From Verrucomicrobiia bacterium (GTDB taxonomy: Bacteria > Verrucomicrobiota > Verrucomicrobiia > Verrucomicrobiales > Akkermansiaceae), in contig JAUIJD010000010.1 in assembly GCA_030431475.1 (NCBI GenBank), positions 1 to 64,000 on the forward strand: a DNA stretch of 64,000 nt. The letters run 5' to 3'. The first letter of the stretch is position 1. Every line of letters starts with the position of its first letter. Both the position numbers and the translations under genes were made by a program. Below, one piece after another: positions 33,082-35,601 of this stretch. The notes below the pieces were generated by a model. The model saw only the letters and a list, made by a program, of their open reading frames with translations, had not been told where the DNA came from and searched no databases.

Positions 33082-35601
33082 ATGTCCGAAGCGCTCCGCT
33101 ACTGCCCCGACCTGCTGGCCTACCACCGTCGAGCCACCCGCGAGGTGATGGTCGGCGACGTCGGCATCGGGGGGGATCATCCGATCCGCGTCCAGTCGAT
33201 GATCACCTCCGACACCCGCGACACGCCGGCGTGCGTGGCGGAGATCCTCGGCCTGGCGGAGGCCGGCTGCGAGATCGTGCGGGTGACCGCGCAGACGAAG
33301 AAGTACGCCGAGAATCTGGAGAACATCGCCCGCGAGGTCCGCGCCGCCGGATGCGGGGTGCCGCTGGTGGCGGACATTCATTTCAAGCCCGACGCCGCGC
33401 TTGAGGCGGCGAAGTGGGTCGAGAAGGTCCGGGTCAATCCCGGCAACTACGCCGACAAGAAGAAGTTCGAGGTCCGGGAGTACAGCGATGCCGAGTACGA
33501 GGCCGAGCTGGAGCGGATCCGCGAGCAGTTCGCGCCGCTGGTGGAGTTGTGCAAGGAGCGGGGCCGGGCGATGCGCATCGGCACCAACCACGGATCGCTC
33601 TCCGACCGCATCATGAACCGCTACGGCGACACGCCGCTGGGGATGGTGGAAAGCGCGCTCGAGTTCGCCCGCATCGCGCGCGAGCTCGACTATCATAACT
33701 TCGTGTTTTCGATGAAGGCCTCGAACCCGAAGGTGATGATCGAGGCCTACCGCCTGCTGGTCGCGCGGCTCGATGCCGAGGGGCCGGACTGGAACTACCC
33801 GATGCACGTGGGGGTGACCGAGGCCGGCGACGGCGAGGACGGCCGCATCAAGAGCGCGATCGGCATCGGCTCGCTGCTCGGCGACGGCATCGGCGACACG
33901 ATCCGCGTCAGCCTCACCGAGGATGCGGTGCACGAGATTCCGGTCGCCCGCGCGTTGGCCGAACCCTTCCAGCCGGGCGGCGAGGAGGGTGGCTGCGGCT
34001 TCCAGCCGCAGGCCGTTCAAGCGGCTTCCAGCCGCCGATCGTTGGAAGAGGACGCGAAGGCCATTTCGATCGATTGGGAGGAAGTCCGCAAGGACTGCGC
34101 CAGCTACCTGCCTCACTGGAAGCTGGATGGCGGTACCTACGCGGTCACCTTTCGCCTGGCGGACTCGTTGCCGCAGCCGGTGCTCGACCGTTATCGCTCG
34201 GAACGTGAACGCCTCGAAGCCCTCCTTGCGAGAGCCAGGGACGGCGGGGATTCCAGAAGCATGCTGCCGCGGCTTGAGGAATTGCTGACGGAGCTTTCCG
34301 GAGCCTACGAGAGGATCATCGGTCCGGAGCTGGATTCCGGCTTCGGCTCCTGTCTGCTTGCCGACCCCGGGTGTGCGGGGATCGTGGCCGGAGCATTGAA
34401 GCACTTCGACGGAGATCGCTACGACCTACTCGCCTGGTGCGTGATGCCGAACCACGTCCATGCGGTCCTCAAGGTCGGGGAAGGCCAGGAGTTGGAGGAG
34501 ATTCTGCATTCATGGAAGAGCTTCAGCGCGAATGAGATCAACAAGCTGAAGGGTCGGAAGGGCACGGTGTGGCAGAAAGAGAGCTACGACCATCTGGTGC
34601 GGGACGGGAAGGACCTGCGACGGCAGGTGGGTTATGTGTTGAAGAATCCGACCGGCGCCGGGCTTGAAGATTGGGAATGGGTTGGAAGTGTGTATGACGC
34701 GGCTGGAAGCCGCGGAGACGGCCTGCGGCAGGATGCCGCAGCCACCCCCTCCTACGATCCGTTTTCCTACGAGAGACGTCGTAGTTCGGAGATGGAAGTT
34801 GGTGGCGTGGCGCTGGGGGGCGAGCAGCCGATCCGGGTGCTCACCACGCAGGAGAACTGGAACGCGCTGGCCCACAAGATCGCCAAGCTGGGCGACTACA
34901 AGCCGGAGGAGGTGCTGGAGAAATCGGGTGTGGTGGCGATCGACCCGCGCGACGATGCGGCGGTGGCCGGACTGAACGAAACCTCGGAGGCGAAGCTGGT
35001 CACCGTGGCCGACGGCCTCGGCCTGCCGGTGGTGGCGGCCTTCCGCATGCTCGCGTTCCGCCTTGATCCGCGGCATCCCATCCTGCTCAAGGACACGCTG
35101 GACCCGCCGACCGGCAATGGCGATTTCCTCGACGCCCTCTTGATCGGCGCGCGCCGCCTCGGCGCGCTGCTCTGCGACGGCATCGGCGATGCGGTGATCG
35201 TCCGCGCCGAGAGCGCCCCGGGCCAGTCGCTGCGCATCGCCTACAACATCCTGCAGGCCGCGGGCGCCCGGATTTTCAAGACCGACTACGTCGCCTGTCC
35301 GAGCTGCGGGCGCACGCTGTTCAACCTGCAGTCGACGACCCAGAAGATCCGGGAGGCCACCGGCCACCTGAAGGGCGTGCGGATCGCGGTGATGGGCTGC
35401 ATCGTGAACGGCCCCGGCGAGATGGCCGATGCCGACTTCGGCTACGTCGGCGGCGCGCCGGGCAAGATCAACCTCTACGTCGGCAAGCAGGCGGTGAAGT
35501 TCAACATTCCCGAGGCCGAGGCGGTGGACCGCCTGATCGACCTGATCCGCGAGCACGGCAAGTGGATCGACGCGCCCGAGTCGGAACCTGCGGAAGTCTG
35601 A
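33082..35601 (+). CDS. ispG: 4-hydroxy-3-methylbut-2-enyl diphosphate synthase with in-frame RAYT insertion
   Basis: IspG (GcpE) converts methylerythritol cyclodiphosphate to hydroxymethylbutenyl diphosphate in the MEP isoprenoid pathway using a 4Fe-4S cluster. The N-terminal TIM barrel spans residues 1 to about 300 (PIRVQSMITSDTRDT, VPLVADIHFKPDAAL, VRVNPGNYAD). The C-terminal part holds the extra domain of the long chlamydial/plant form and the cluster domain with Cys739, Cys742 and Cys773 and the ligand Glu780 in GCIVNGPGE. Between them, residues about 302-557 are not IspG. They encode a REP-associated tyrosine transposase with its flanking inverted repeats, in frame and without a stop. 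Without this block (251 codons) the protein would be 588 residues, normal for the long form. All IspG motifs are intact, so it may still work. clpS follows after 3 nt. Confidence 0.93.
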   Translation: MSEALRYCPDLLAYHRRATREVMVGDVGIGGDHPIRVQSMITSDTRDTPACVAEILGLAEAGCEIVRVTAQTKKYAENLENIAREVRAAGCGVPLVADIHFKPDAALEAAKWVEKVRVNPGNYADKKKFEVREYSDAEYEAELERIREQFAPLVELCKERGRAMRIGTNHGSLSDRIMNRYGDTPLGMVESALEFARIARELDYHNFVFSMKASNPKVMIEAYRLLVARLDAEGPDWNYPMHVGVTEAGDGEDGRIKSAIGIGSLLGDGIGDTIRVSLTEDAVHEIPVARALAEPFQPGGEEGGCGFQPQAVQAASSRRSLEEDAKAISIDWEEVRKDCASYLPHWKLDGGTYAVTFRLADSLPQPVLDRYRSERERLEALLARARDGGDSRSMLPRLEELLTELSGAYERIIGPELDSGFGSCLLADPGCAGIVAGALKHFDGDRYDLLAWCVMPNHVHAVLKVGEGQELEEILHSWKSFSANEINKLKGRKGTVWQKESYDHLVRDGKDLRRQVGYVLKNPTGAGLEDWEWVGSVYDAAGSRGDGLRQDAAATPSYDPFSYERRRSSEMEVGGVALGGEQPIRVLTTQENWNALAHKIAKLGDYKPEEVLEKSGVVAIDPRDDAAVAGLNETSEAKLVTVADGLGLPVVAAFRMLAFRLDPRHPILLKDTLDPPTGNGDFLDALLIGARRLGALLCDGIGDAVIVRAESAPGQSLRIAYNILQAAGARIFKTDYVACPSCGRTLFNLQSTTQKIREATGHLKGVRIAVMGCIVNGPGEMADADFGYVGGAPGKINLYVGKQAVKFNIPEAEAVDRLIDLIREHGKWIDAPESEPAEV
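33991..34035 (+). repeat. Left REP doublet of the RAYT element
   Basis: Two tandem palindromes, GGCTGCGGCTTCCAGCCGCA (33991-34010) and GCGGCTTCCAGCCGC (34021-34035), are separated by GGCCGTTCAA. The pair is the inverted counterpart of 34699-34743, differing at about six positions. Both hairpins have the TTCCA-type loop seen in REP families mobilised by RAYTs. It is translated as part of ispG. Confidence 0.88.
34699..34743 (-). repeat. Right REP doublet of the RAYT element
   Basis: Read on the minus strand this is the same doublet as at 33991: GGCTGCGGCATCCTGCCGCA followed by GCGGCTTCCAGCCGC. Together the two doublets delimit the transposase and form its presumed mobile boundary. Confidence 0.88.

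What the first reader, a model, noticed from the sequence alone, without database searches (positions are those of the whole stretch)
33984..34752. A RAYT transposase with its REP ends sits in frame inside the essential gene ispG
Seen: the ispG reading frame contains a full IS200-like Y1 domain (HUH histidines 458 and 460, candidate catalytic Tyr502) bounded by 45-nt inverted REP doublets. The segment between the outer ends of the doublets is exactly 251 codons, and no stop interrupts the 839-codon gene. All IspG landmarks on both sides, including the three cluster cysteines and the ligand glutamate, are kept. Known: RAYTs mobilise REP sequences and normally lie between genes; long-form IspG has an extra domain after the TIM barrel, so the site is a domain boundary. 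Inference: the element is either tolerated as a translated fusion, made from one polypeptide, or it separates the product in some way. An ATT at 34063 replaces the expected ATG of the transposase, which would favour the fusion. An MEP-pathway enzyme carrying a transposase domain would be unusual.
Basis: partly seen in the sequence, partly recalled or inferred. Interest (0 to 1): 0.9.

Follow-up and report, generated by a model that had tools for sequence, protein, structure and literature searches.

The report
Transposase housed in-frame in essential genes
A DNA-cutting transposase sits in the middle of a single-copy, probably essential enzyme gene, with no evident start codon and no stop codon of its own, and seems to be made as part of that enzyme; the same arrangement recurs in related bacteria and in other housekeeping genes, so it looks like a way of life for a mobile element rather than an accident.

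Summary
One open frame of 839 codons (33082-35601) holds IspG with a RAYT (REP-associated tyrosine transposase) and its palindromic ends in the linker after the TIM barrel. It is the only ispG found, and no mevalonate-pathway reductase was found. It is not a one-off: 35 ispG genes of the family that I read (this one included) carry a RAYT at this linker, in frame as far as the contigs reach; these RAYTs form one clade. HUH and Tyr motifs are kept in 34 of 34, dN/dS is about 0.1 in close pairs, left and right palindromes of one element match (0.92 against 0.645 between elements), and near-identical ispG genes can hold different RAYTs while diverged ispG genes hold near-identical ones. So the insert is kept and exchanged. 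An upstream ATG is rare, GTG/TTG are scattered, and no stop follows: the RAYT depends on the host frame. In-frame deletions and scars occur. Sister RAYTs sit in frame in MetH, LeuRS, CarB, HsdR, PglX and a TPR protein, and in other phyla in AlaRS and ValRS. I read this as an intein-like, non-splicing, in-frame lifestyle of RAYT elements. Translation, enzyme activity and transposition are inferred. Eight searches of open papers found no report of it.

The parts
33082..35601 (+). ispG with in-frame RAYT insert, 839 codons plus stop
33082..33951 (+). IspG N-terminal TIM barrel (about residues 1-290)
   Evidence: TIGR00612 first stretch 16-291; AlphaFold2 model
33989..34745 (.). insert between outer tags GTGGCTG and CAGCCAC, 757 nt (3n+1)
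33989..34035 (+). left REP doublet: tag GTGGCTG plus palindromes 33995-34009 and 34021-34035; read as a flexible linker (residues 303-317 have pLDDT under 50)
34033..34695 (+). RAYT (Y1/HUH) domain, about residues 318-538; HUH 34453-34461, Tyr 34585-34587; no ATG upstream in the insert
   Evidence: (4er8, E 7e-8)
34699..34745 (-). right REP doublet: palindromes 34699-34713 and 34725-34739 (the latter with 2 mismatches) plus tag CAGCCAC; read as a flexible linker (residues 540-555 have pLDDT under 50)
34756..35601 (+). rest of IspG: middle domain and iron-sulphur domain, three Cys and one Glu kept

Best explanation
An in-frame RAYT element. The transposase has given up its own ATG and stop codon and its palindromic ends are read as linkers, so it is made as an internal domain of the host enzyme, IspG, whose promoter, ribosome site and essentiality it shares. 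Mutations that shift or stop the frame are removed because they cost the cell its ispG, while the RAYT sequence itself is kept by selection for its own DNA-processing function. The element spreads between ispG alleles of related species at the same linker, by homologous exchange around the insert or by renewed insertion, and is lost by in-frame deletion. Shown: frame, single copy, kept active-site residues, purifying selection, matched ends, exchange, recurrence in other genes. Inferred: translation as one chain, activity of both parts, essentiality of this ispG, and the cut-and-move step at the GTGG/GTAG-tagged palindromes.
For: RAYT in frame with the upstream half in 35 of 35 loci and with the downstream half in 33 of 33 where it lies on the contig. 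Only ispG in own genome; two half-matches per genome in 32 of 32 relatives; no HMG-CoA reductase but IspH present. RAYTs of ispG form one clade (34 rows, SH-aLRT 94, 35 rows, 91), whereas the host tree needs 14 changes of state, at least 10 forced by starred branches. Same-site swap: L049/L054 flank dS 0.07 and 0.09 with the insert saturated; reverse case L054/L057 insert dS 0.08, flanks 0.67 and 0.53, with sharp edges. omega 0.06-0.33 in 13 close pairs. HUH 34 of 34, Tyr motif 34 of 34. Left/right outer palindrome identity 0.92 within against 0.645 between elements, 0 of 10000 permutations. ATG within 45 codons upstream in 4 of 34 ispG inserts and 4 of 50 others, against 31 of 45 standalone RAYTs. 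Hosts confirmed by HMMs. Frame-preserving deletions L118, L125 and scar L108.
Against: No expression, activity or transposition data. GTG or TTG lies within 45 codons upstream in most inserts: some start-like codon in 29 of 34, though at no conserved place, so an internal start is not excluded. The trees are quick ones with SH-aLRT only. The 13 omega pairs share sequences; 11 deeper pairs give 0.14-0.53 and are near saturation. metH, leuS and TPR hosts are not single clades (5, 2 and 3 changes), so site fidelity is not absolute. In one search, L056, L114 and L120 show no good arm match (L120 ends at a contig edge; L114's outer tags lie beyond the stretch scanned). L062 has ATD where the others have RD after the Tyr motif. 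No conserved target motif flanks the tags, so the moving step is unproven. No full-length match was listed for any of the 38 order-level genomes. Many loci were picked for long frames, and standalone RAYTs were defined by short ones, so the stop-codon contrast (1 of 50 against 45 of 45) is partly built in.
Confidence: 0.78

Rival explanations
1. Domestication: the RAYT domain has become a regulatory or DNA-binding part of IspG and is kept for the host's benefit.
For: Purifying selection on the insert and presence in 35 read ispG genes.
Against: Near-identical ispG genes have it, lack it or hold a different version (L046/L033, L049/L054, L114/L125); the same kind of domain sits in unrelated enzymes.
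Confidence: 0.1
2. Passive tolerance: a chance in-frame insertion protected only because frame and stops are policed by ispG; the transposase itself is dead freight.
For: The linker varies in length among relatives without insert, and in-frame deletions occur (L118, L125, L108).
Against: HUH and Tyr kept in 34 of 34, omega about 0.1 in close pairs, matched left/right palindromes and exchange between species.
Confidence: 0.07
3. The insert is removed after transcription or translation (IStron-like RNA splicing or intein-like protein splicing), giving a normal IspG.
For: The lifestyle (recurrent sites in housekeeping genes, exchange, one open frame) resembles inteins.
Against: No intein domain in Pfam or NCBIfam, no ribozyme in Rfam; the ends are REP palindromes that encode disordered linkers; scars and partial deletions stay in frame.
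Confidence: 0.04
4. Assembly or binning artefact.
For: Many of the genomes are fragmented assemblies.
Against: Present in single-contig genomes G002 and G170 and in named records of Luteolibacter pohnpeiensis KCTC 22041, strain E54 and, for metH, Roseibacillus persicicus; the versions differ between species.
Confidence: 0.01

Closest known systems
REPtron (RAYT/TnpA_REP gene flanked by REPs)
   Same: HUH/Tyr nuclease, GTAG-type tagged palindromes on both sides, REP copies elsewhere in the genome.
   Different: REPtrons in PMC3733652 (passages, sections 15 and 16 read) are transposase genes beside REPs; here the RAYT is read as part of a host protein. PMC8049555 (passages) calls RAYTs single-copy and vertically inherited; here they are exchanged.
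Intragenic REPs and Rickettsia palindromic elements (RPE)
   Same: Palindromic repeats inserted in frame in protein genes (PMC3733652, passages and section 15); also in uvrA of this genome.
   Different: Those inserts are short repeats without a transposase; here the whole transposase is part of the frame.
Inteins with homing endonuclease (recalled; only a listing seen)
   Same: In-frame residence at recurrent sites of housekeeping genes, several host-site-specific lineages, exchange between alleles, patchy distribution.
   Different: No splicing domain found; the ispG site is a variable linker; the mobility enzyme is a Y1 ssDNA transposase.
REP inserted in tnpA_REP of subclass 2.4 (PMC6006769, passages)
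   Same: Insertion that does not disrupt the reading frame.
   Different: There a REP lies within the transposase gene; here the transposase lies within a metabolic gene. That survey says that a few unexpectedly long proteins, put down to gene fusions or annotation errors, were discarded.

Membership tests
RAYT / TnpA_REP | Y1_Tnp domain with HUH and catalytic Tyr | tested here: met
   Pfam Y1_Tnp 27.3 over 23; PDB 4er8 E 7e-8 and Foldseek hit; HUH in 34 of 34, Tyr motif in 34 of 34
RAYT / TnpA_REP | NCBIfam NF047646 above cut-off | tested here: inconclusive
   71.5 bits against 80, E 6.5e-20
RAYT / TnpA_REP | flanked by tagged REP palindromes that recur in the genome | tested here: met
   tag GTGG/GTAG
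REPtron as described (separate transposase gene) | own start and stop codon | tested here: not met
   no stop between insert and IspG; no ATG upstream in the insert; GTG/TTG start not excluded
RAYT / TnpA_REP | ssDNA REP cleavage | not testable with these tools
   biochemistry needed
IspG (long form) | GcpE halves, three Cys and Glu ligands | tested here: met
Intein | protein-splicing (Hint) domain | tested here: not met
   no such match in Pfam or NCBIfam
IStron / mobile intron | ribozyme | tested here: not met
   Rfam 0 matches at E 0.1 over 33700-35000

The most novel reading that the evidence does not exclude
A new class of mobile element: obligately in-frame, non-splicing transposons built on RAYT, which use essential genes (IspG, MetH, LeuRS, CarB, ValRS, AlaRS and others) as promoter, start, stop and safe harbour, persist as host-gene-specific lineages and home between alleles across species and phyla.
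Probability: 0.5. Interest if true: 0.95.

Novelty: new variant of a known kind. Interest (0 to 1): 0.9.

Why it matters
It shows how a transposase can persist: by living inside, and being translated with, a gene the cell can hardly lose. It goes against the modelling assumption that a REPIN copied into a gene destroys it (PMC8049555, passages), offers a route for RAYT spread between species, and warns that some very long 'fusion' proteins may be embedded mobile elements. It makes questions testable on laboratory isolates: is the fusion protein active, does the RAYT cut its own ends, and does the element home.

Tried and rejected
Artefact: rejected for the class by isolates and single-contig genomes. 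Second intact ispG: none. Intein or ribozyme: none found. A target motif next to the tags: none seen. Simple vertical descent: rejected by host/insert discordance. The first alignment of the loci used unturned minus-strand loci and was redone. The first Tyr regex missed four of 34 because of its first-letter class; one search finds 34 of 34. In one search pairs were listed by low insert dS, which biases; one search repeats it with pairs chosen on the host part alone. L102 (frame of 913 aa) was not counted as embedded: its upstream part looked spurious to me; no family search was run on it. L112 was dropped from the trees and dN/dS because its main site is a deletion scar and its RAYT is at a second site. 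L113, L120 and L067 were left out of the C comparison and L063 out of the N comparison. In one search the script skipped L041, L113, L120 and L121 and I left out L112 and L109; L118 and L125, which keep pieces of an insert, were labelled empty there. In one search the ispG set was thinned by 18 loci, 20 named loci that I took to repeat earlier contigs (13 checked by equal contig length) were dropped, L223 was too short and five contig-edge loci were left unlabelled. In one search nine named loci were left out as edge or ambiguous. A draw of 387 genomes of the phylum gave 100 with a RAYT of this kind, the listed rows mixing long and short frames; I did not read those loci.

Literature: eight searches gave no report of RAYTs in frame in host genes in what I saw (listings, abstract starts, and passages of four papers); only open-licence PMC papers are searched. 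Bertels et al. 2017 (GBE evx146) was not held and is known here only through its citation in PMC8049555.

Full report
What is in the window. The frame 32980-35601 is open throughout. From ATG 33082 it gives 839 residues: GcpE/IspG in two stretches and a Y1_Tnp domain between them. Inverted palindromic arms of 49 nt bound the insert. The outer tags are GTGGCTG at 33989 and CAGCCAC ending at 34745, 757 nt apart. The same palindrome core occurs 25 times in the 4.73 Mb genome and its reversed control 0 times. The genome gave no other ispG, no HMG-CoA reductase (the control rings in 5 of 14 genomes) and IspH, so this ispG is probably essential. An AlphaFold2 model from an alignment of 38 relatives (mean pLDDT 80.8, pTM 0.66) shows the IspG barrel, a separately folded RAYT and low-confidence stretches at residues 303-317 and 540-555, which are the peptides encoded by the two palindrome doublets. 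Foldseek finds solved IspG structures and, at rank 28, the RAYT structure 4er8.

It is recurrent. Of 97 genomes searched, this one included, six give a full-length match through the insert. Of 260 genomes of the family, 30 give a match that spans both halves of IspG (to at least residue 784 of 839), 25 of them in one genus group (g13) and five in three others. Weaker or partial matches led me to read five more with a RAYT at the main site (L113, L114, L119, L120, L137a): 35 in all. In one search the RAYT has the frame of the upstream half in 35 of 35 loci (one of these, L112, at a second site; L137 was read later), and the downstream half has it in 33 of 33 where it lies on the contig; L113 and L120 end first. 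L137 is one frame of 1120 aa with two RAYTs. In each of 32 relatives tested, GcpE matches are just the two halves of one gene (24 of the 32 are at least 90% complete and at most 5% contaminated). Named records with the arrangement include Luteolibacter pohnpeiensis KCTC 22041 (L191) and Verrucomicrobiaceae strain E54 (L184); G002 and G170 are single contigs.

It does not look like a private gene that happens to overlap. Between outer tags the length is 3n+1 in 25 of 26 loci with both tags; in these 25 the outer left tag lies in codon phase 1 and the right one in phase 2. The exception, L114, was scored from an inner copy; its outer copies, further out, are in phase 1 too. An ATG lies within 45 codons before the RAYT core in 4 of 34 ispG inserts and in 4 of 50 inserts of the other fetched loci (two of these 50 are in the ispG of L137), against 31 of 45 standalone RAYTs. 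GTG or TTG codons are scattered there: 29 of 34 ispG inserts have some start-like codon in that stretch and five have none. A stop follows within 60 codons in 1 of 50 (the C-terminal CinA case) against 45 of 45 standalone, but that contrast is partly built in, since standalone was defined by short frames. So the insert most likely depends on the host's start, and certainly on its stop.

It is kept and it moves. HUH is present in 34 of 34 and the Tyr motif in 34 of 34. omega of the RAYT is 0.06-0.33 in the 13 closest pairs, median 0.10; 11 deeper, near-saturated pairs give 0.14-0.53 (pairs share sequences). In 25 elements with both tags, left and right outer palindromes are 92% identical within an element and 64.5% between elements, 0 of 10000 permutations as high; for the inner palindromes 67.5% against 52.3%, also 0 of 10000. 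Host and insert histories disagree. RAYTs in ispG are one clade (34 rows, SH-aLRT 94; 35 rows, 91), but on the IspG tree of 68 rows the fused state needs 14 changes, at least 10 forced. L049 and L054 have flanks at 88-100% identity (78% in the bin at the left edge) and inserts at 32-75% (flank dS 0.07 and 0.09, insert saturated). L054 and L057 show the reverse: insert dS 0.08, flanks 0.67 and 0.53, with high identity reaching about 80 codons upstream, like a co-conversion tract. Frame-preserving losses occur: L118 keeps the left end, L125 the right part, L108 a decayed scar. L112 has the main site reduced to a scar and a second RAYT elsewhere in ispG; L137b and L195 also use a second site. Several empties may never have held the insert; scar and never-filled cannot always be told apart.

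Other hosts. Searching the family with a sister RAYT, the first 78 listed rows all lie in open frames of at least 425 aa; row 79 is the first short one. Of the loci fetched, hosts confirmed by HMM on one representative each are MetH, LeuRS, CarB, HsdR, BREX PglX, a DUF5107/TPR protein, CinA (upstream only: the RAYT is C-terminal) and an adenosine deaminase (weak upstream, E 1e-4); the other members were assigned by sequence motif. One TPR case lies in this very genome (L094). In 47 of the 50 RAYTs of these loci the flanking inverted repeat beats all 50 shuffles. carB (97), hsdR (87) and ispG RAYTs are single clades, metH, leuS and TPR are not; 12 host groups need 14 changes, 11 being the least possible, shuffled mean 62.1. 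The clade with ispG, metH and TPR RAYTs has 60 rows and no standalone one, though loci were chosen partly for long frames. In the named collection, cases outside the family with host matches on both sides are AlaRS (L220, L246), ValRS (L222, L238), LeuRS (L242), a YoaA/DinG helicase (L213), a salicylyl-CoA hydroxylase-type protein (L202), PglX (L243 and L262, the latter Lamprocystis purpurea) and, more weakly, isochorismate synthase (L250) and a PglX-like protein (L251). L200, L201 and L209 have long frames without a host named on both sides. On the widest tree embedded and standalone RAYTs need 16 changes, at least 5 forced, so the habit arose or was lost several times.

How it probably works. 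The RAYT is translated as an internal domain of IspG, joined by flexible linkers that are its own transposon ends. ispG supplies expression and removes frame-breaking mutations; selection on the RAYT's own activity keeps its catalytic site. Published biochemistry shows that RAYTs cut single-stranded REPs, that the GTAG tag matters, and that a GTGG variant is cut at CC (PMC8266576, passages). Spread between ispG alleles could be by homologous exchange or by re-insertion; the data do not separate these. The 3n+1 length plus a cleavage dinucleotide would make whole codons; that is my speculation.

Against. Nothing here shows protein, activity or transposition. Trees have SH-aLRT only. L056, L114 and L120 show no good arm match (the last two for reasons of the stretch scanned). 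No target motif was found. No full-length match was listed for the 38 order-level genomes. An internal GTG/TTG start is not excluded.

Known or new. REPs inside ORFs, also in uvrA of the verrucomicrobial Opitutus terrae, and in-frame RPEs of Rickettsia are known (PMC3733652, passages and sections 15 and 16). A survey of the Y1 family discarded a few unexpectedly long proteins as fusions or annotation errors (PMC6006769, passages). A model of REPIN persistence takes insertion into a gene to destroy it and calls RAYTs vertically inherited (PMC8049555, passages). Eight paper searches showed me no description of RAYTs living in frame in host genes; paywalled papers are not covered.

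Noticed in passing
L175:816-4199 (own genome, contig C34): A uvrA-like gene of this genome (named by eye) carries REP palindromes in frame at two places, like the uvrA genes reported for Opitutus terrae in PMC3733652.
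   Followed up: partly
L094 (own genome, contig C29, 5176-5757): A second embedded RAYT in this genome, in frame in a DUF5107/TPR protein of 1371 aa.
   Followed up: yes
L113, L114, L119, L125, L066: In-frame tandem repeats have expanded next to the element ends (for example STSSQP or PSNSNN units), lengthening IspG further.
   Followed up: no
L098 (leuS of G014): Besides its embedded RAYT, LeuRS carries further in-frame REP-like peptides (SEGFQPS...RRQDAFAPL).
   Followed up: no
L144, L150, L159, L165, L147, L243, L251, L262: Embedded RAYTs also sit in defence genes: type I restriction HsdR and BREX PglX-type methyltransferases.
   Followed up: partly
L135, L136 (metH): Two RAYTs at two different sites of one MetH frame, in frames of 1412 and 1408 aa.
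   Followed up: partly
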